Below, in pieces: positions 6,026 to 48,039 of a stretch of DNA of 64,000 nt (its first letter is position 1; every line of letters starts with the position of its first letter). Source of the DNA: Apus apus (lineage: Eukaryota > Chordata > Aves > Apodiformes > Apodidae); assembly GCF_020740795.1 (NCBI RefSeq), contig NC_067286.1, positions 1,855,990 to 1,919,989 on the forward strand, in the 5' to 3' direction. The notes under the pieces are model-generated. The model made no database searches. It was not told where the DNA came from and worked only from the letters and a program-made list of their open reading frames with translations. A program made the translations under genes and the position numbers.

Positions 6026-6756
6026 AGTTTTCAAAGCAAAGGTAGCTGCAGAAGGTTCCTACTACCTACGTCATTCTATGTCCTCTCAACATTACAGCAG
6101 AAGAGGAAAGTTTCCTCTCTCTTCATTTTCTACTGCTTGATTTTCTTTTCTGATTTGACACCATCCCCATTTTAGCCTACCTACTACTTTAAATTAGTAT
6201 AGCTTACATTAGAATTTATTAGTGATAATCATTTATGGGCATGGGGAGACAAAGGCCATCTGAAGTTAATAAAATACCTGTCCATGTTAAACACTCCACT
6301 AAAACCTCCACAAGGCCACATCACAATGCCCTTTCCCCCCTGTGATCAGTAGGTGTATTTACCCACTGTTTTGTAGAAGTACAATGAGGCATGAGGCCCA
6401 AACTTCCTCACCTGTGGGAAATAAGGCAGGGATTTAGGACAAAAGTAACTGCAATAAGAAAAGCAGGCCAAATAACTAAGTTCTGAAGTAGATACCCATT
6501 ACCCAGAACTTCCAACAGCATCTGCATGATCTCCAAAGAGATGAAGGTATGAACTTCTTAGATGAAAAGAAACTATTTGAAAACATTGCACACAAGACAG
6601 ACAACATCTCACCAAAGGACTTTTAAATTCAGTTTTATTTCAGAAGTAAAAGAGGAAGAAAATATAATTCATTTCAAAATTAAAGGTTCAGCCTTGCTTA
6701 TTCTTTTCCAACATTCATTAGGATTCTAAGCTCCAGCAAGGAAATTCCCACCCATT

Positions 6757-7095
6757 CACAGAATCATAGAGTGGTGAAGGTTGGAAGGGACCTTAAAGAT
6801 CATCAGGTTCCAACCTCCCTGCCATGAGCAGGGACACCTCCCACCAGACCAGGCTGCACAAGCTTCATCCAACCTGCCCTTGAACACCTCCAGGGATGGG
6901 GCTTCCACAACCTCCCTGGGCAACCTACTCCAGTGCCTTCGTACCCTCATGGTGAAGAATTTCTTCCTGATGTCTAACCTAAATCTCCCCTCTTTCAGTT
7001 TAAAACCATTGCCCCTTATCCTATCACTACCCTGGTAAAAAAAAAAAAAAAAAAAAAATCACCTTCCCAGCTTTCCTGAAGGCAAATGTAGCTCT
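6757..7095 (-). mobile_element. CR1 LINE 3' fragment with internal A-run
   Basis: Starts with agaatcatagagtgg and follows the CR1 3' region in reverse through caacctccctgggcaacct to ccagctttcctgaaggc. A run of 22 A at 7037-7058 has expanded inside the element. Its sense strand lies on minus. Confidence 0.93.
7037..7058 (+). repeat. poly(A) run inside CR1
   Basis: 22 consecutive A within a CR1 copy, at a place where related copies have only a short A-rich stretch. Confidence 0.9.
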
Positions 7096-8133: not shown

Positions 8134-25183
<17,050 letters not shown>

Positions 25184-25520
25184 TTTGCAAGCTTAGGCGA
25201 CCCCCAAAGGCAGGGAGGGCGACGCGAAGAGAAGCAGAACGCGGGGACGGCCCGAGAGAGCAGCGACCGCGACGGACGAGACGCCGGGAACAGCGGATGG
25301 GAAGGGGGGGTCACCCCGCCAGGAACCGCAGCACGTCCCACAGCACCCGCAGGTAGCGGGAGCGACCGCACCTTCTACCCCAGCGCTGTGCCCGCCCCCC
25401 GCTACCTCCTTGACCAATAGCGTCACGGGCTGCGGGCAGCGAGGGCTGTGAGTGGCTGAGAGGGACGTCAATCAAGCGCGGTGGCGGGGGGCGGCGCCCG
25501 CGGCCGCTCGCCGCCTCAGG
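25184..25520 (-). promoter_or_regulatory. CAT: CAT promoter and 5' UTR region
   Basis: TATA-less, GC-rich sequence upstream of the CAT start. An NF-Y type CCAAT (CCAATAG) lies on the plus strand at 25414-25418, about 230 bp upstream of the ATG. A GC box (GGGGGGCGGG on the gene strand) lies at 25391-25400, and a CRE-half-like GACGTCA at 25464-25470. Known mammalian CAT promoters also use CCAAT and GC boxes without a TATA box. The transcription start is not determined. Confidence 0.65.
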
Positions 25521-25640
25521 CCGGCGGGGGCTGGTTCCTCGGGTGTCGGGGTAATTAGTTGTGGAAGCGGCTTAATTATTTGGTTCGCGTTTTCAGTTTA
25601 GTGGGTTGGTTGTTTTTTTGTTTTTTTTTTTTTCCCCGAG

Positions 25641-25949
25641 ATGTCAGAACTTTCTCCAGCTGCTGCTGAGGGAGACATGGCCGGCCTGGGAAATGACAGA
25701 GGATGGGGTGAGGGCGCTGCCAAAACTTGCCGTTGCTTCGAGGGAGTTTTGTTTCAGCGTGAAAAGGTGCGATTGCAGATTCAGACTGCAAGTTCAGAGC
25801 GACCGAGTGTGCGGTTCAATGCTCATCCTTGTGCCTGTACCTCAAAGGAGGCACCTGACGTCGTTCATCCTTCGTACGCGCCCGATCGTGAAGGGTGTTT
25901 TCTTTGGAGGCCTGGATTTGTAACCTTAAGCTCCATTCTGAATTCATGA
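25641..25949 (+). other. 102-codon ORF divergent from the CAT promoter
   Basis: Plus-strand ATG with G at -3, about 460 bp upstream of the CAT ATG. The protein starts MSELSPAAAEGDMAGLGNDRG. No family recognised; a second frame (25606-25923) is also open over the same stretch, so coding is unproven. It could lie in a promoter-divergent non-coding transcript. Confidence 0.2.
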
Positions 25950-28900
25950 GAACACTCCCCTGGGTTATACTTACAAAGGATGAGGTACATACAGCTGTCC
26001 TGTTAGGCAGCTGTAGTCCTGCTCCTTCAAGCCCTGTCACCTGCGGAGTTTTCCTGCCCTGTGGCCCACGGGTCCATCCCTTGTCCTGTCACATTAATGA
26101 CTCTGGGGGACATCCCGTGGCTCTGTGCCTGAAGGATGTACGTACAAGTGATGAAAGTGCTTAAGAGGCAGTTATTTTTCCAATTTCTCAGGCAAAACCT
26201 TTCAGCAACCTGAATAACCTACTTTAGACTATTAGGTTGTGTGACACAGGGTGCTTGAAGCATAGATGAAGATCTCCACCTACCAGTAATTCTGTGGACT
26301 TGCACTTCATGGCACATGAAGCTTAGAAAACTAAACTATTTCTTTCCCCTTATTAGCTCTTCCCTAATGACAGTGATTGGGGGTAATCCTAGCAGATAGG
26401 AGACTTCCCTGAACAAGCTGAAATTGCCCAAATGGGGTTGAAGTTTATAAAAGCAAGTGAGCCAGCAAGTTTTGTATGTGTGTTGGTTTGGTTTCCCACC
26501 ACTGTCATTCTTGATAAGAATCCCAATACGGTTCTTTACAGAACAGATACTACAACAATGGAGCAAAGCAGCTCTGCTTACCCTTATCCTGTCAGAAATG
26601 AATGACATGGGGGAAATGCTTAGCTGCAAGTTTATGGCTTCATTTTTTTTCCCTTAACAGGTACAAAGAATAGTCTAGCTCGTTATTTCAATCACACAAT
26701 TGCTTTATCTAGTGTTTGTTATTATGTATTAAGAGTGCTAAGACTCCCAGATTCACATCTGCATTGCCTAGACAATAACACTTTTCCCCCTTTGTTTTTT
26801 TAAGCATGTCATTGATATTTCAGTTTGCTTGACCAGCAGAACGGGGGAAATGTGGATGTTTTCATGAAGAGCAACTGTTTGCTTTTCCTTTAAAGTTTAA
26901 CACTGCCTGTCAACAAAAGTCTGTAGATAAACTTCCTTGTCACAAATATACTTCAAAGTAAGAGTAACTTGCATAAACTGCTTCTTTTTCATTTCCTGAG
27001 AACTCTGCTAGTGTAAGTCTAATGCTAGAGGAAAAGATATATGTGTATAAAGGCAGTTGTAAGTGTGCCTAAAAAAACAAGAGGGGATTAAATATTGCCT
27101 AAAAAAATAAGCAAAAAAAGTTCCAAGAGAGAGCAGGTGGCAACACCAATGCCAAGCATCTTGCCAAAACGTTTGCACTTCAGCTTCACTGCTTGCACTT
27201 AAGCAACTGCTTTTGATAAGAAAGGTCATATACAAAGCTAAGTGTAAAAGAACTATGCTTTTTTTTTTCTCTCATCTTGCCATGATCTTGTAGCTTTTCA
27301 GTGAAGGGAATAGTGAATACAAGTTTGAATTTCACAGGTACCTTGCTGTGGGTATCTATTTCCTTTTCCCCCCCTTCTATTTTAATATTTGTTTCCTGCA
27401 GCATCTTATTTGCCTGCGTAAGCCTCCTGTTAAATATGCATTAAGTAAACAAACTTCAAACAATCCCAATTTAATAATCTCTGTTTACCTGGGGAGACTG
27501 GTTCTGTGTTGCTGTGTGTCTTTCTGAGGCACAACCCAAACCACACTTCACCCTCAGTTCAGATTTTGAGAGATTAAAAGTCATAATGCTTAGCATTTGT
27601 GTTTTGTTTTCTGTATTTAAAGTAGTTTAAATATAAACTACAAGGTCAGTTTCACTCTCACACACAATTGTGCTGTATGTAAAGTTTATGCATAGCTCAG
27701 TCTTTTACACCCAAGGGAATGAGCTAGAATTAGTCAAGCAGAAGGTTAATAGGTCTGTTGCTTTGCTAATTAAGTTCCGTGAGCACTGAAAGCTTCCATG
27801 CTGCAGCCATCTGACTTGGTACCTACCTCGTTCTTATGATTAATCAGATTCATAGATGTTCTCATGTTCTCTACAACTCCTGAGTAGGTCATCCCACCAT
27901 GACTTTTATTCTAAAATATCAGAAAAGAGAAACACAAGACAGAGAGTGCCCAGCAGAGAGAAAACGTGGACTTCTAGGAAAACACATGTAAAAGAAAACC
28001 AGAAAAAGGCACATAGGAAAACTCTGGTTTGGGTTTGAAATTTTGTGCCATCCTCTGCTGTAGTTAGTAGGGCAAGGTTTGAATTAAAACACTAGAGAAA
28101 AAGAGCAATCTAAGAGATTGAAAAGCATGTTAGAATAACGAGAGTTTATATGTTACGAACAACACGTATTTCTTTTATTCTGCTTCTTTTATTAATCACT
28201 TCAGTGATTCTGGAGCAGACATGTTTTCAAATGTTAGTACTGTTTGTGAGTAATGTCAATGGATACACCAGTCCTGGAGTAAAATAAATTTGGCAGTATT
28301 TAAAAAAAAAGAAAAAAAGAGAGAATATTGTTTGTCTATATTAATGTTCTGCAATAATTTATTAATTTTCATAGACATTACTTCTGATCATCATCATCAA
28401 GATGTGTTTCATATTTGTTGCTGGAAAGACAGCTGCAATGTACTTCTGGAGATAACTGAAAGAAGAATAATAGAATAAGAAATGCAGCACTGTTCAGGTG
28501 GTAAGGTATTCAAACGTGTTTAGCATTCTGGTTATTTTAGTTTTGTGGTTTTATTCCTAGAAACTACATTATTAAAAAGACTTCATATCAAAGAAATACA
28601 ATTATCTTTTGTTATTGCATTTGCTTTTATTTTATTTCAAGTTAGAGCACCAATAAGTCAGCTTATGAATGTTTTTCTGCATTTCTGTATTATTAGCAGC
28701 ATTGTCTGAAGCATTTACCTAATAGCAGTTAATGAAGCCTCTATTTTGAAACATTATTTTGTCCATTATTGCTTCATTCTGCATAAGAAAAAAATGAGAC
28801 AAAGCAATATGTTTTTCTGTTGTTAGACTCAGAAGCTCTTAAACTTTTAAATGGGTCAAGCATCCATCATGACTTAGTCACATTGTGCTTTCAATTAGTC

Positions 28901-30781: not shown

Positions 30782-32223
30782 CACTTTAAATATCTGTCAT
30801 TCTCAGTGTATTTTACATCATAACAGGAAGCATCTAAGGCTGGAATACTAGCAGAAAAGTCTGTTTACCATCTGCTTACATATCTTAATTTTGACAAAAA
30901 GAAAGTCTAGCAAAAAAAATTCCAGGATGAGATTCAAAGAAGCAAGGGTCAGAGAGAAATACAGCACTGTCAGTAGCATATCAGAGAGATACAAAATAGC
31001 TATTTTAGCCTGGAATAATTGGTTCAGCACAGTGCCTGCCATCTGGCCAGCAGCTTGCTGATGCCCTTTGCCCCAGCTGTCTGGGGTACCAGCAGCATTT
31101 GAGCTGTTGTTCCAGTCCCTCTGATAAAAACAGGTTTCCACACTAACTAGTTATGTATCATTCTTGCTTGCAAAGATGACCACGATTTTGTTTAAGACTT
31201 ACACGATTGCCAGGGACTACTTCTGGTTTCTGCTGAAGCAGAGTAAAAGGCCTGGACAAACCCTTGACTGTTTTGACCACAGGTAGATGCATGGAAAATA
31301 AACAGACCTCATTATTTTTTTCTGTTGATAGAAAATTCATTGCCAGAAATAGGGGAGCTGAAATGACAGAAGCATCTAATATACATTAAAAAAAAGGAAA
31401 ATAATTCTCTAACTATGGTAGTCTCTACAGCATTTAATTAGACATTGGGATCAATTATAGACCTCATAAAAAGTCTCTGGTTGTGATATGTATGGAGACC
31501 TATGTTTTTAGAAGGTGTGCCTGCTTTCTAAAAGTTGGTGGAAGAGACAATGGTTATTTTGACATATCAGCACAGCACTTCACTGTTTCATGAGAAGCAA
31601 GAAATGGTAAAAGTTACCTGGAAACTGCAACAAATCATTAGTTTGCTGAGTTTGTTTTGGTTTTGTTTGTTTGCTTGTTTTTGTTTTTTGTTTTTTTCTG
31701 GAGGTTGACATAAAGCTATAAGGTTAATATATTGATATATTTCTTTCTAGCTACTAATAGTCCCTTGCACCCTTGGCTGGCCATTCACAAGTTATTTACA
31801 AGAGGCTTACAAGCCATTTACATTGCCAAAAAACTTATGATGTAGGGATAAGAAGAAATACCAGTCATAACTTAGAGACCATCACATTTATAAACAGGTT
31901 AAAACCTTCTAAACAGACCTCCAGTGATCTATCAGCATTCCTACCCAGCTTTGTTGATGTGCATTTCCTGTTTTTGTTGGGTGAAGTGCAGTGTTTGTTC
32001 TGTGTTTGAGTAGCACACTTGGGTCTTGATCCATAACGTGCACTTCTAAGCAATTTTCAGACGAATCCACGTTTTCCACTGAAAATGCTGCCTTCATTTT
32101 CTTTCAATACTTCTAGTCTAAAAATATTTGGTATGTTTTTACAACTACCAGAAAGAGTTCTATAACAGTCATGTAAATTAGGCCAGTTGTTGACCACCAA
32201 CTACTTTGGATTCACCAGCAGTG

Positions 32224-32484
32224 CATGGGGTAGTGGTTTTAAACTGAAAGAAGAGAGATTTAGGTTAGAGATGAGGAGGAAATTCTTCACTGTGAGGGTG
32301 GTGAGACACTGGCCCAGGTTGCCCAGAGAAGCTGTGGCTGCCCCATCCCTGGCAGTGTTGAAGGGCAGGTTGGATGGGGCTTGGAGCAACCTGGTCTGGT
32401 GGGAGGTGTCCCTGCCCATGCAGGGGGGTTGGGACTGGATGATCGTTAAGGCTCCTTCCAACTCTAACCATTCTGTGATTAACA
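32224..32484 (+). mobile_element. CR1 LINE 3' fragment
   Basis: Sense CR1: tagtggttttaaactgaaag, then ttcttcactgtgagggtggt, then ggttgggactggatgatc and the ccattctgtgatt tail. 5' truncated as is usual for CR1. Confidence 0.93.
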
Positions 32485-34989
32485 GTGAAAACAGCTATTT
32501 TTCAGTAGTCCTGACTACTTTGTTATTAGCATGGTAGAGGGGCTCTTTTTTTTTTTTTTTTACAGTGTGCTAATACCCCTTCTGTTTGATATTGTAACCA
32601 GTATATCCTATTGACAAAAGGCCCCATTGTACTTGAAAGTTAATGCCAATTATTCTTCTAAGAACTGGACATAGACCTTGGTCTATCCTCCTGTATTTTA
32701 GTGCATTTGAACAAGGAGGTTTTTGTTGTGATCCAGTTCTAATGACTTCTCCTATGACATTCACCTACCGTTTAATTCAGTTATTTTGTCAACCTCTGAT
32801 CCATCTCTGACTCATCATTTTCTTGAGTGCTGGGGGATCCTGTACTTCATGATCCTGGCAGCAGCCCCATTTTTACTAAATCATAAAGACTATTCTTATA
32901 TTTTTTCAGGACCAGTGATACTTCCATTACAGATGAGGTGTCACAGGTCAGCCTTCGCAGTGACGTAGGTGGAAAAAAAGGGAGTTGTCATTATCTACCC
33001 TATGCTTACATCATATGTTTATTCCTGAGGGGCAGTGACAACTTGGCCCATGTCAGCAGCCTCCTTGTTGGAAAAATATTCCTGGGTTATATATTAACAA
33101 GCAACCCTGTGTCATAACTGAAACGAGGTACATAAGTTGGTGAACAGCATTACTTTTATGAAGACTATGTGTTGACTAGGTGGTTCTTCAGCCAATAGTA
33201 CTAATTAAGAACTCACCTACACTTGCACATACTGACTGACAATGAGTTTTGAAACCTTATTATGTCATTGTTTCCCTGCTGATTTTCACAGAATTTTAAT
33301 TTTTTGAGTTGTAAGTATGAATTTTAGAACAAAAACATGGTGGTACACACATTCACTATCTTCACAAGAGTAGTGAGATAGTAAAATAACAATCATTCAC
33401 ATAAAAACTAGGAACAAGGACACTGAAAAATCATGAAGAGTGCATAATGTAAGGTACTTTTTGACTGCCATATAAACTCAGAAAGTTTTCATTAATTAGT
33501 TCACTCAGGCAGTAAATTTCAAACCACAAACCCCTGCTCCAACATACTGAGATTAAATCTCCCCATTGAAGAAGGTTTCTTAAAGTTTTTAGTATGGGCA
33601 GTATAATTTGGTGATGAATACTAGAATAACAGGTACTGTGCTGTTAAAATGTTATATGGAATAAAGAAATGTTCTTGTTACAGAATCTTTGGGACAGAAA
33701 CAAAGACTTTTCCTCTATTTCAAATTCTGATGTTTCAGTGGCCTACTAATGTTACAAACTTTGTCTTCTGTTTTGTTTTCCATAAAAATGCCAATGTTAA
33801 TGGTCATGCTAGGTGAGTTATAGCACTTCTCACACATACCTTTTACATTTTAGTTATAATTTCCTTTAAAATTCAGCCTAATTTTTGAACAGTTACCAAT
33901 TAATTTACTAAATTAGCATTATCTGATATTGTCTGTGAGGTATTTAAACCATATGAAGTACACCTCAAACTGAAAAATTTGTAAAATTCTACTCTAGGTT
34001 TATGTGCAGGTAGGCAAGGTTTTCCAGTATATACTGGAAATAGCTAAAATCTCTTGAGTTTATCAGAAATCAGATAAAAGAAAATCAGGGTCACAAAGTA
34101 AAAAGATAGGAAGATCTTAGTGAGGAGAGAAATCTGCAAATGAAGACATTGTTTTGTTGTGGGTTTTTTCCCCCTTATTCTAACACATTTGGCATTCTTT
34201 CAGTAATTATTTTGTTGCTGGAAGTAGAGATTCATTGTAGTTATTTCCCACAAACATGTTTGAACTTTCCTCTCCTACCTTCAAGATGAGTACTGGGGTG
34301 ATACTGCAGCACTCTCTCTGTCTGTCTGCTTCCAAAGCAGAATGGCTTTTTGGAAGGTTGCCAGGTAACCTCGCCACTGCTCAGGGTAACCTGAAATACA
34401 ATCCAATAATTCTGAACACAAACCCATCGAGGGTTTATAGCATTTTGGCCTGGGTTCATTAGGAGACTTGGTCATAGCTCTGTGATGCCTGGAGATGGCC
34501 TAGACTGAAGGTGTCACTTTCAGCACCACCAGCCTAACATGCTGTTATCAAGTCTTAGGATAGCCTTACACTCTTGAAATCTGTCCCTAGTGGTGAGCAG
34601 GGCCATCTTAAGCTTCAGAAAATGAAAATATATGTGAAGGAAAGCACATGACTGCATTAAACACAGTAGCATGCATGTGTCTCCTGGCAAGAGGTCACTC
34701 TGACAGGCATCCATTCATCCCCATGCCTCTGTATGTCTCCTTGGAATATTTTCCGTGCAGATCAGAAAACATTGTGCTCACTGGGAACAAACCCCATTCC
34801 ACCCATACTTCCTGTGGAAACATCATCAACAACGTGCTGGAATACAGTTTATATAAATGATGTGACATCACCTTGGTGAGGGGATAGCTGTCACATCTCC
34901 TCTTTTTTCCCAATGATGCTTTCATGTGCATTTCCTACCTGGCTCCTTTCCAAGGTTCCTAATTGCAGAAGCCATCTTCCCATGGGCCT

Positions 34990-43019: not shown

Positions 43020-43641
43020 TATGAGCCAGTAATGTGCCCTGGTGGCCAAGGAGGCCACCAGCATCCTGACTTGTACCAGTAATAGTGTGGGCAGCAGGAC
43101 CAAGGCAGGAATTGTCCCCCTGTGCACAGCACCTCAAATCCTGTGTTCAGTTGTGGGCTCCTCACTACAAGAAGGACACTGAGGTGCTGGAAAGTGTCCA
43201 AAGAAGGGGAATGGAGCTGGGGAAGGGGCTGGAGCACAAGACGAGTTTGGAAAACTTAAAAGGAGCAGCTGAGGGAAGTGGGGGTGTTCAGCCTGGAGCA
43301 AAGGAGGTTGAGGGGATACCTTCTCCCTCTCTGCAACTCCCTGAAAGGAGGTTGGAGCTGGGGAGTGGTTGGTCTCTTCTCTCAAGTAATAAGTCATATG
43401 GCCCCGAATTGTGCCAGTGGTGGTTCAGGTTGCATACTAGAAGAAAATTCTTCACTGAAAGCCTTGTCAGGCCCTGGCACCGGCTGCCCAGAGGAGCATC
43501 AGAGTCACCACCCCTGGAGGAATTCAAAGATGTACGGATGTGGTGCTGAGGGACACGGTTTGGTGGTGGGCTTGGCAGTGTGCTAGCTTAACGGCTGGAC
43601 TGGGTGGCTTTAAAGGTCTTTTCCCACCAGAACGGTTCTGT
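43020..43641 (+). mobile_element. CR1 LINE fragment next to the ABTB2 CpG island
   Basis: Sense CR1 covering the end of ORF2 and the 3' UTR. Readable remnants in 43085-43549 include QLWAPHYKKDTEVLESVQRR and the [18 protein letters not shown] block. The tail has gctgagggacacggtttggt and ends near 43641. It belongs to a different CR1 subfamily from the copies at 32.2 and 35.2 kb, judged by the tail. Confidence 0.9.
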
Positions 43642-44725: not shown

Positions 44726-45590
44726 ATGGCTGGGATATACAGCTCTACTCTGAAGACCCTGGAGGATTTGACTTTGGACTCTGGTTATGGGGCAGGGGAT
44801 TCCTGCAGGTCCCTTAGTCTCTCTTCTTCCAAGTCCAACTCGCAAGCTTTCACCTCTTCTCAGCACAGAGGCAACTGGTGGTACTACTCGGGCTCCATGA
44901 ACAGTAGGAACAACAGCTGGGATACCGTGAACACTGTCCTGCCAGAAGATCCCGAGGTTGCAGATATCTTCTCCAAGTGTCCTAAGCTGCCGGATCTAGA
45001 GGAATACCCTTGGACTGATGAAGACATGGGAAAAATACTCCGAAAAGGGAAAGGAGATGGCCACGCCAGAGCCTTTTCTCAGGAAGCCGTCAGGCGGCTC
45101 TCGCAGCTCCTCAGGCGCGCCTTGATCAGGGTCTCCAGGGAAGCTCAGCGCCTCAGCGTGATGCACTCCAAGTGCACCCGGTTTGAGGTGCAGAGCGCGA
45201 TCAAGCTCATCCAGAGCTGGTCCTTGTCGGAAAGCTGCGTCTTGGCCACTGTCAAGGCTCTGTCTCTGTACAGCATGAGTGCCGGGGACGGGCTGAGGAA
45301 AGGTAAATCGGCGAGGTGCGGCCTCACCTTCTCCGTGGGGAGGTTTTTCAGGTGGATGGTGGACACGAGGATCTCAGTTAGGATCCACGAGTATGCAGCC
45401 ATCTCTTTAACCGCTTGCATGGAGAACCTCGTAGAAGAGATTAAGGGTAGGGTTTTGGCAAGTCAGAGCCCGGATGGCGGAGGAGGGGAGATCTCTGCTG
45501 AAATCCTGGAGATGGTTATCAACAACGATGCCGAACTTTGGGGAGTATTGCAACCTTATGAGCATCTCATCTGTGGGAAAAATGCCAATG
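44726..45590 (+). CDS. ABTB2: ABTB2 exon 1 (N-terminal histone-fold region), partial gene
   Basis: N-terminal 288 codons plus one base of ankyrin repeat and BTB/POZ domain-containing protein 2 (BPOZ-2), a large scaffold linked in the literature to cullin-type ubiquitylation. The start [20 protein letters not shown] matches the mammalian protein almost exactly, as do the [18 protein letters not shown] block and the end [12 protein letters not shown]. Residues about 125-185 resemble histone H2B (EAQRL 139-143, RFEVQSA 152-158). Residues 197-275 resemble H2A (CGLTFSVGR 198-206, INNDAEL 265-271). A Ser-rich segment lies at 29-45. The donor is ATG|GTAAGA at 45590/45591, phase 1. The frame continues open into the intron to 45706 by chance. 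The ankyrin and BTB domains are outside the window. Upstream in-frame sequence has no ATG, so the start is secure. Confidence 0.95.
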
Positions 45591-48039
45591 GTAAGATCCA
45601 GCTTTTACGATTTCTGATCTTCATACCAGCCAGCTTTACAGTAAAGCTGCTGATATCTGTGGACTTCTGTTGTTTGGTCTTTTTTCTGGTTTTTCTTTTC
45701 ATTTGAATTGTATCCTGGTGGGTGGTTGTGTGTGCGTCGTGCAGGCGTGATGGTTTTACTGGGTGAAAATGATTCTGTTTTATTCTTAAGTTGTACCAGT
45801 TTATAAAAGGTGTAGAGGCTCTGCGAAACCAAACCCTGTTGTCCTAACCAATGTCTCTTGATTTTCTACCAGCTGCAATTTTGAACGTTTTTACTGTAAA
45901 CTGGCATGTAAACACGTCTCTCTGTAACTGTAAGATGATAGGTGCTTTACCAGTACTCTTTAGAAAATACCACTATTGTTTTAAATAAAATTTTTCTGAT
46001 AGTGTCTTGCAGTTTCATCTCCAAGATGCTATTCCCACATACAGCCTGGAGAGGGAAAACAATATTTTTTTCTTTGCAGTAGTAAAATTCAGCTTCTGAG
46101 CAGAAACTGCTAACTGCATGTTACTTAGACTTCCTTCTCCTTTAGCAGAAACCGGTGTTGTAATTACACTCATGCAATAAGCAAGAGCTTGTTCTTGGCT
46201 TGCCAAAGTGGGATGGTGCCTCAGTAATGAGAGTAACATGGCATTAAGGTGCTTACCTCTGTCATTTGTTTAGAAAGCAGTCTTTTTGAACAGTTAAGAA
46301 AATAAGCAGATAGAGGAATGTTGGCATCTTCCGATGAGACTGAGGAGCAGTTTGAAAGGCTTAAGTCCTGACAGTTCTGTTAAGAAGCTGCACTGTTTAT
46401 TTTGCATTGTCACACTGAAGGGTACCACATTTTTCCATGGAAGACTTGAGGAAAGATTCAGTTTAGAAAACTGTTCTCTGTGTGCATTTTCATTACTTTT
46501 GCTGGCCTCATCATTACAGCCAGATATTCCAAGCATAATACCTTTCTCATCTGACTCTTTATAAACCCAAGTGGCTTGGTTGTCTTCGAGAGATCATCTC
46601 ATAACAAGACGTAAGTAAAGAGTGGATTTTCTTTGTGGAAAAAAACACAGCTTAGGTGAATGTCAGTAATGACATGCTTGGTCAGAGAAAGGCTGACTCA
46701 ACTTCTGCTTCCTGGGTGCATTGATTTCCTGCAGTTATTCTATACCAAAGCAGTAATGCCACGATGCAGATCACTGCTAGATAGGTGCAGTGGGTGTCCC
46801 ATTGGGTCAGCCTGGTTCAAATTACAAATGTTATGAAACCCACAATACCTCTCCTGTGCCCTCTCTCTGTCCACTGGCAGGTTTAGTGAATATATGTGAA
46901 ATAAACATGAGGAACCCTTTGGGATGTGCTCTTGGCACTGGTACAAGGTGTTACTGTAACTTTAAAAGTCAAATATAGCCATCTACATTTTTAACTACAA
47001 GCTCTTTGTTGCAAGACCATGAAGGTATGGGGATGTCATGTCCTCTGCCAAAACACTTGTCGTAATTCTTTGTCTACCATGGGGGCATTTATCACCAGCT
47101 CCAAAAAGAGGACTTGCTTCCCTCTTTTGTTCCTTATTGAGGTAAACAGGAGTAAAATATTGTGGTTCTATAAAGTAAAACTACCTTCATTTCAGCTGTT
47201 CACTGCTCAGTGCTTCTGCCACACAAGTTCTGTGAGTAAAACAGAGATGAGGAGTCAGTTCCTCATGGAGTTGGTTTTTTTTCTTAAGAGAAATCTCCTT
47301 GAAAAAATTGCAATGAATGAATGGAAGCTGGACTTCAATGGGAACACGAGTGACTGAGCAGGGAAGTGCTTATAAATATTCAAACCACCAAATGGTCAGT
47401 TATGATAACGCTTGTGCAGCATAACAGCAAGCAGTCACTGGCCGCAGAAGGATTGGCTTCTGTTGCCTCTTTTGTTGTTCTTGTCTTTGAGATCAATTCC
47501 GTCAATAATTTAATGCATTTTTTAAGTCGGGGAAATGGAATAAAAGGGCACATGAAGGTATCCTGTGATTTCCTGTGACAGTCTGTCACTAGTATTTCAC
47601 CTGACACAAGTCAGTGAGTCTTCTAAATGGCTTTTCTTGCAGTTGTAAGGCCATAAATGGTTTTATATGGATGCAAAAAAGCTTGAAATAACTTCTTTAT
47701 TTGTTCTTCCTGTAGGAATTGTAAATCAGTAGTATTCACATCATTCTCCACAGGGCTTTCAAATCGTCTTTTACGTTAATTTAAACCTAAGGTAGATTTA
47801 GCAGTAAAATAACTGGATTTATTCCAGCATAAGGAACAGGAAAACTTGCTTTACTGTCATTTTTTGTTTTCTTTTATAGTAAGAACACTTCAGTTGAGTA
47901 CTTGTAAATTGCAAACTTGGCGTATGTTTGTTGAGCTTTGTTTTATAGCACCGTGTTTGATGCTAGAGATAAAAAGCACTTAGAGGTTGAGGTCTGACTC
48001 CAGTCAAGCACTGCAATCCCTGAATGAAATCCACAGCAG

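What the first reader, a model, noticed from the sequence alone, without database searches (positions are those of the whole stretch)
45089..45560. ABTB2 exon 1 looks like a fused H2B-H2A histone pair
Seen in the translation: residues 139-143 EAQRL, 152-158 RFEVQSA and the [10 protein letters not shown] block (174-183) line up in order with H2B (EASRL, SREIQTA, EGTKAVTKYTS). Immediately after, 198-206 CGLTFSVGR, 225-239 ending ENLVEEI and 265-271 INNDAEL line up with H2A (AGLQFPVGR, EYLTAEI, IRNDEEL). By this alignment the H2A acidic-patch positions E56, E61, D90 and E92 are kept as E233, E238, D268 and E270, while E64 and E91 are lost; H2A Arg29 is kept as Arg206. This suggests an intramolecular H2B-H2A-like dimer in a cytosolic ankyrin/BTB protein, with a possible acidic-patch-like binding surface. 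A histone-fold assignment in this family is, as I recall, already in domain databases; the ordered H2B then H2A reading and the acidic-patch retention are my own observations.
Basis: partly seen in the sequence, partly recalled or inferred. Interest (0 to 1): 0.75.

Follow-up and report, generated by a model that had tools for sequence, protein, structure and literature searches.

The report
H2B-H2A-like double histone fold, ABTB2
The first coding exon of a bird ABTB2 gene encodes two histone-like halves in the order H2B then H2A, a protein shape already described for this family, and the suggested acidic binding patch is only half kept, no better than in a relative not known to use one.

Summary
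Window 44726-45590 (+) is exon 1 of ABTB2 (288 codons and one base, then a GT donor). Residues 116-273 match single-chain H2B-H2A constructs in the PDB (best E 5.7e-12). The N half scores with H2B and the C half with H2A, each well above other histone folds. A reversed fusion gives two pieces totalling 30 bits instead of one 50-bit alignment. The paralogue ABTB3/BTBD11 behaves alike, more weakly. A 2026 review (PMC13088155) dates the double histone fold of ABTB2/Cca3 to 2005 and compares the two halves of a close relative with H2B and H2A, so the ordered reading is not new. Four of eight acidic-patch positions are acidic in ABTB2, four in ABTB3, but also four in human SOS1. E56/E61 are acidic even in archaeal HMfB, and retention is not enriched over general identity (P 0.10-0.19). 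What separates ABTB2/3 from human SOS1 is E92, completing the E61/D90/E92 arginine-anchor triad, and a one-sided set of histone DNA-contact positions. AlphaFold models were too poor to test geometry. Orthologue conservation could not be tested.

The parts
44726..45590 (+). ABTB2 exon 1 coding part, 288 codons plus one base; GT splice donor at 45591
   Evidence: open frame and donor read directly; paralogue frame has a GT donor after the matching residues GKNAS and one base
45008..45277 (+). first histone fold, H2B-like, residues 95-184; helix 1 (about 95-107) only weakly supported
   Evidence: match starts at residue 116-118; helix 1 placed by MAFFT only
45278..45301 (+). short linker between the folds, residues 185-192
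   Evidence: boundaries are my choice from the alignment; 3 of 8 identical to ABTB3
45302..45553 (+). second histone fold, H2A-like, residues 193-276
45422..45439 (+). E233 (H2A E56) and E238 (H2A E61), acidic-patch positions kept; acidic too in SOS1 and HMfB
45527..45535 (+). D268 (H2A D90) and E270 (H2A E92) kept, A269 (H2A E91) lost
45221..45223 (+). S166 at H2B E105, patch acid lost (T in ABTB3)
45245..45247 (+). A174 at H2B E113, patch acid lost (A in ABTB3)
45305..45382 (+). basic edge K194, R197, R206, R209, R219 at H2A R17, R20, R29, R32, R42 (histone DNA-contact positions, recalled)
   Evidence: same charge in ABTB3 at these five
45170..45178 (+). K149, C150, T151 at H2B R86, S87, T88 (loop L2, DNA-contact positions, recalled)
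45521..45589 (+). H2A-like helix alpha-C and its extension [23 protein letters not shown], residues 266-288, 19 of 23 identical to ABTB3

Best explanation
Exon 1 of this bird ABTB2 encodes an intramolecular H2B-H2A-like histone pseudodimer (double histone fold) at the head of an ankyrin/BTB protein. Shown by sequence: two folds, order H2B then H2A, the same in the paralogue ABTB3, with BTB exon matches about 118 kb downstream on the same strand. Inferred: the pseudodimer is a rigid recognition head. Its H2A-like alpha-C and extension pack on the part that follows (ankyrin repeats, not looked for here), and its exposed faces bind a partner, while the BTB domain binds cullin 3. The face most likely used is the one-sided basic edge (H2A alphaN-alpha1-L1 plus H2B L2), which keeps histone DNA-contact residues in both paralogues and could bind DNA or an acidic partner. 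The acidic-patch face is a weaker candidate because half of it is gone.
For: Fold and order. Reversed fusion 30.0 bits in two pieces against 50.2 in one. hhalign of the ABTB2+ABTB3 halves: C half with H2A 95.7% (E 9.6e-9), N half with H2B 36.1% (E 3.8e-4), the other 16 comparisons at most 2.2%. Paralogue: 53% identical over residues 7-247; its peptide MHSRHNSFDTVNT equals the BTBD11 peptide printed in PMC7886700, so the identity is not only recalled. Architecture: five matches in order to a BTB/C-terminal query at C6:2019534-2024033. Conserved regions between paralogues: alphaN-alpha1-L1 23 of 30, alpha-C plus extension 19 of 23, against L2 4 of 13 and H2B alpha1+L1 6 of 22. Basic edge: H2A R17, R20, R29, R32, R42 all K/R in both paralogues. 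Net charge of the fold +6 and +7, SOS1 1-179 -2. Cullin 3 and ubiquitination: PMC12664368, passages only. Prior double-fold assignment and DNA-binding reports for Cca3: PMC13088155.
Against: No usable model: pLDDT 36 alone, 43 with histone rows; Foldseek 0 matches at E <= 0.001. Pfam gives no family for the exon at E <= 10, and Pfam Histone does not list ABTB2 or ABTB3 among 39 matches in the genome. In the order test an H2A-H2A fusion sums to 38.9 bits in two pieces (best piece 20.7), above the reversed fusion; for ABTB3 it is 33.4 against 38.2 for H2B-H2A, so most of the signal is the H2A half. The ABTB3 N half is weak (7.2 bits with H2B, shuffle maximum 5.7; one of its shuffles reached 14.0 with H2A). 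The five basic positions were picked after the fact: of ten DNA-contact positions listed, 5 keep their charge in ABTB2 and 6 in ABTB3, and basic residues overall are not enriched (4 of 14 identical). Packing on the ankyrin repeats is inference.
Confidence: 0.6

Rival explanations
1. Acidic-patch mimic: the kept E238/D268/E270 triad (H2A E61/D90/E92) forms an arginine-anchor pocket that binds an arginine of a partner or of ABTB2 itself.
For: Triad acidic in ABTB2 (E, D, E) and ABTB3 (D, D, E); human SOS1 has V at E92. PMC10606924 (passages) gives E61, D90, E92 as the anchor pocket. E237 adds an acid beside the pocket in ABTB2.
Against: H2B E105 and E113, H2A E64 and E91 are lost in both paralogues. 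ABTB3 puts R at A60 and at H2B H109. E56/E61 are acidic in HMfB and SOS1, so are not patch-specific. Not enriched. N89..E92 could be conserved as a helix cap (inference).
Confidence: 0.12
2. Structural and autoinhibitory module like the Sos H domain: the pseudodimer only contacts other parts of its own chain; acidic and basic residues serve folding and packing.
For: Sos is an animal double histone fold with a solved structure and an intramolecular role (PMC13088155, sections 3.4 and 4). Highest paralogue identity is in alpha-C and its extension (19 of 23), the part that leads into the rest of the chain. Four of eight patch positions acidic in both SOS1 and ABTB2.
Against: No direct sequence match between ABTB2 and SOS1; SOS1 1-179 has net charge -2, ABTB2 fold +6, and ABTB2 keeps a basic edge.
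Confidence: 0.25
3. DNA or chromatin binding: the pseudodimer binds DNA through its one retained histone-type edge and brings the cullin 3 ligase to chromatin.
For: H2A R17, R20, R29, R32, R42 kept as K/R in both paralogues, H2B R86 as K and T88 as T. PMC13088155 reports DNA binding of Cca3 in specific cell-cycle states (source papers not read).
Against: The opposite edge is degenerate: K74, K75, R77 are G, G, E in ABTB2 and E, A, R in ABTB3, with a long insertion in ABTB3 L2. The substrate reported in PMC12664368, TRAP1, is called a mitochondrial chaperone there.
Confidence: 0.2
4. Chance similarity of helical, charged sequence.
For: Pfam silent; structure models uninformative.
Against: E 5.7e-12, class specificity and order specificity, the same in the paralogue.
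Confidence: 0.01

Closest known systems
ABTB2/Cca3-type double histone fold proteins (Greco, Sacco et al. 2005, cited in PMC13088155; original not read)
   Same: This is that family: double histone fold in an ankyrin/BTB protein, H2B-like and H2A-like halves; identities here 17 of 67 = 25% and 26 of 75 = 35%, about 25% and 30% in the review for the related Cca3S proteins
   Different: Nothing categorical; the patch and DNA-contact residue counts are added here
Sos H domain (PDB 1q9c, 3ksy)
   Same: Single-chain H2B-like then H2A-like pseudodimer in a signalling protein; four of eight patch positions acidic
   Different: No direct sequence match; net charge -2 against +6; E92 is V in human SOS1; in this genome the H domain is matched as four separate pieces at each of two loci, while that of ABTB2 and ABTB3 lies in one exon
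Viral H2B-H2A doublets (Marseilleviridae; recalled)
   Same: Same order of the two folds in one chain (recalled)
   Different: Those package DNA (recalled); none was recovered in viral contigs with these queries, so not compared by sequence
Nucleosomal H2A-H2B dimer
   Same: Halves match H2B and H2A specifically
   Different: One chain, 25-35% identity, no histone-like tail sequence matched, half of the acidic patch and one DNA edge lost

Membership tests
H2B-H2A-type double histone fold | two histone folds in one chain, N half H2B-like and C half H2A-like | tested here: met
   (sequence only)
H2B-H2A-type double histone fold | the two folds pair antiparallel into a pseudodimer in three dimensions | tested here: inconclusive
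ABTB2/Cca3 family | double histone fold followed by BTB on the same gene | tested here: met
ABTB2/Cca3 family | ankyrin repeats between fold and BTB | not tested
   the stretch between exon 1 and the BTB matches could not be fetched
Nucleosome acidic patch | eight acidic residues: H2A E56, E61, E64, D90, E91, E92 and two H2B glutamates | tested here: not met
   four of eight acidic in ABTB2 and in ABTB3
Nucleosome acidic patch | arginine-anchor triad E61, D90, E92 | tested here: met
   E, D, E in ABTB2; D, D, E in ABTB3; binding not testable here
Sos H domain family | sequence relationship to Sos | tested here: not met
   no similarity above noise with human SOS1
Core or variant histone | separate chain, over Pfam Histone cut-off | tested here: not met
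   no Pfam family; not among 39 matches
Acidic-position conservation | positions conserved across ABTB2 and BTBD11 orthologues | not testable with these tools
   no other animal genome could be searched; only the paralogue in the same genome was compared

The most novel reading that the evidence does not exclude
ABTB2 and ABTB3 keep a stripped-down arginine-anchor pocket (H2A E61/D90/E92 triad) without the rest of the acidic patch, and use it outside the nucleosome to grip an arginine motif, so that nucleosome-binding proteins or histone-H4-tail-like peptides become partners or substrates of a cullin 3 ligase.
Probability: 0.08. Interest if true: 0.7.

Novelty: already known. Interest (0 to 1): 0.25.

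Why it matters
It gives the known double histone fold of ABTB2 a quantitative H2B/H2A order test and a residue table with controls. It turns the acidic-patch idea into a specific test, three residues and one basic edge, and shows that patch letters alone are not evidence, since SOS1 and an archaeal histone share several of them. If the triad pocket did bind arginine anchors, nucleosome-type recognition would be at work in a ubiquitin-ligase adaptor.

Tried and rejected

Viral relatives: two scans of viral contigs found none. The scan of prokaryote genome contigs gave four loci with core histones of eukaryotic type (read as contamination, my judgement), used only as histone references. PHROGs and NCBIfam gave no family for the exon.

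Patch enrichment: P 0.046 for ABTB2 when only the five alignable H2A positions are counted was rejected as too kind. With E64 counted as lost it is 0.10, and with both H2B acids 0.19. In one search the first HMfB block (H2A 23-40) is set one residue out of register; only its alpha2 block was used. SOS1 counts use the H2A side and the H2B 90-120 block. An earlier reading that SOS2 in this genome has V at E92 was dropped: in both own-genome SOS exons the V codon is the GT of the splice donor, so E92 is not readable there; the human SOS1 residue comes from the sequence checked.

Pfam BTB in the own genome did not list the ABTB2 locus among 124 matches (150 of 170 candidates scored), probably because the domain is split over exons. 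'Acidic patch' does not occur in the held text of PMC13088155, and none of the 14 papers listed holds both it and an ABTB name; these are open-licence papers only, so this does not show that the idea is unpublished. Greco, Sacco et al. 2005 and Miyake et al. 2026 were not read. PMC1866393 (passages) concerns an H3-H4-like viral double fold and was not used.

Full report
WHAT IS THERE. The window lies at C6:1855990-1919989 of a 1.1 Gb genome; that it is a bird is my judgement from gene content and repeats, not a tool result. An open frame from ATG 44726 runs 288 codons to 45589, followed by G and the donor GTAAGA. Two catalase exons lie on the minus strand at 14662-14781 and 13673-13783 (Pfam Catalase); catalase as the neighbour of ABTB2 is recalled. 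BTB and C-terminal matches lie about 118 kb downstream on the same strand, C6:2019534-2024033, five in order. A paralogous exon lies at C1:149616166-149617122; its peptide MHSRHNSFDTVNT is identical to the BTBD11 peptide printed in PMC7886700 (passages), so it is ABTB3/BTBD11.

THE HISTONE MATCH. phmmer against the PDB gives 335 sequences at E <= 10, 60 shown. The best are single-chain H2B-H2A constructs, E 5.7e-12 over residues 116-273. Split in two, the first half alone gives H2B or H2B-H2A fusions in all 60 rows shown of 181 (best 2.4e-5, a chain with two H2B copies; the best single stretch is weaker, E 1.2e-3 for 7ybf_A). The second half gives H2A or such fusions in all 60 shown of 207 (best 5.1e-6). 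Models of H2B, H2A, H3, H4, HMfB and the two SOS1 halves were scored against each half. ABTB2 N half: 13.0 bits with H2B, at most 2.3 with the others. C half: 27.8 with H2A, at most 4.3 with the others. 500 shuffles per half reached 5.4 and 3.2 with the matching model. ABTB3 gives 7.2 and 22.0; its N half is weak, and one of its shuffles reached 14.0 with H2A. As artificial fusions, H2B-H2A scores 50.2 bits in one alignment, H2A-H2B 30.0 in two pieces, H2B-H2B 29.5, H2A-H2A 38.9 in two pieces (best 20.7), H4-H3 and H3-H4 below zero. For ABTB3: 38.2, 22.6, 19.1 and 33.4, and the H3/H4 fusions below zero. Profile against profile, ABTB C half with H2A 95.7% (E 9.6e-9), N half with H2B 36.1% (E 3.8e-4), the other 16 of 18 comparisons at most 2.2%.

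STRUCTURE. Both AlphaFold runs failed to reach useful confidence. Fold searches are inconclusive. The second run was given histone rows and is not independent. The fold rests on sequence and on the published assignment; PMC13088155 Table 1 lists no experimental structure for the ABTB2 type.

THE ACIDIC PATCH. The eight patch residues are H2A E56, E61, E64, D90, E91, E92 and two H2B glutamates; the arginine anchor sits between E61, D90 and E92 (PMC10606924, passages). In that order, ABTB2: E, E, lost, D, A, E and S, A. ABTB3: E, D, lost, D, P, E and T, A. Human SOS1: E, D, K, D, K, V and P, D. So 4 of 8, 4 of 8 and 4 of 8 are acidic. The two SOS loci of this genome read E, D, K, D, K at the first five H2A positions and end at a splice donor before E92. 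HMfB has E33 and D38 at E56 and E61. Against the general identity (26 of 75 on the H2A side, 17 of 67 on the H2B side) retention in ABTB2 is P 0.10 (H2A side, E64 as a loss) or 0.19 (both sides); in ABTB3, identical letters only, 0.34 and 0.46. Counting only the five alignable H2A positions it is 0.046 in ABTB2 and 0.23 in ABTB3. The remaining specific point is E92, which with E61 and D90 leaves the anchor triad acidic in both paralogues and incomplete in human SOS1. A plain alternative is that N-D-x-E-L caps helix alpha-C (inference).

ANOTHER FACE. H2A R17, R20, R29, R32 and R42 are K/R in both paralogues, and H2B R86 and T88 are K and T. In histones these belong to the DNA-contact edge made by H2A alphaN-alpha1-L1 and H2B L2 (recalled). 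The opposite edge, H2A L2 with H2B L1, is degenerate: K74, K75, R77 are G, G, E in ABTB2 and E, A, R in ABTB3, and ABTB3 carries a long proline/alanine-rich insertion there. H2A R35 and K36 are V and D in both. Of the ten H2A DNA-contact positions listed, 5 keep their charge in ABTB2 and 6 in ABTB3. Basic positions as a whole are not enriched (ABTB2: 4 of 14 identical, 5 of 14 same charge), so this is a local pattern seen after the fact. Paralogue identity is highest in alpha-C with its extension (19 of 23) and in alphaN-alpha1-L1 (23 of 30), lowest in H2B alpha1+L1 (6 of 22) and H2A L2 (4 of 13).

FUNCTION. PMC12664368 (passages, with parts of its abstract) reports that ABTB2 binds cullin 3 and promotes ubiquitin-dependent loss of TRAP1. 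PMC13088155 reports cell-cycle-dependent DNA binding for Cca3. The most likely mechanism is a recognition head on a cullin 3 adaptor; which face it uses is open. All of this is inference from anatomy and papers.

NOVELTY. The double histone fold of ABTB2/Cca3 is in print, and the halves of the related Cca3S are compared with H2B and H2A in that order (PMC13088155 citing Greco, Sacco et al. 2005). Searches that could have shown the patch idea: listings only (one search showed 20 of 47, 20 of 45), open-licence papers only; nothing seen, which does not show it is new. Verdict: already known, with a small testable addition.

Noticed in passing
window 44897-44935, residues 58-70: [13 protein letters not shown] aligns with MHSRHNSFDTVNT of ABTB3, a peptide that PMC7886700 (passages) tested as an AKT1 substrate in vitro (BTBD11 S65) and found active. 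Residues 1-94 are 52% identical between paralogues (49 of 94), with the block [12 protein letters not shown] (residues 11-22) kept whole.
   Followed up: partly
L002, ABTB3 exon 1: Long proline/alanine-rich insertion in the H2A-like loop L2 and a shorter one in the H2B-like loop L1, both absent from ABTB2.
   Followed up: partly
window 44726-45590 and L002: The whole double histone fold lies in one exon in both paralogues, while the SOS H domain is matched as four pieces at each of two loci (C4 and C6) in the same genome.
   Followed up: no
G000:C4:41514182-41514478: A 257-residue open frame just over the Pfam Histone cut-off (28.4 bits, E 0.0013), not identified.
   Followed up: no
window 13673-13783 and 14662-14781, minus strand: Catalase exons, divergent from ABTB2; a GC-rich stretch at 24001-26000 may be the catalase promoter region (guess).
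   Followed up: partly
window 6756-7058 (-), 32166-32537 (+), 43070-43549 (+): Two open frames share a peptide of the form GFKLKE.RFRL..R.KFFT.RV.RHW.RLPRE, and the third has a more diverged version ([21 protein letters not shown]); they look like remnants of a CR1-type retrotransposon (recalled). The first gives no Pfam match at E <= 0.01.
   Followed up: partly
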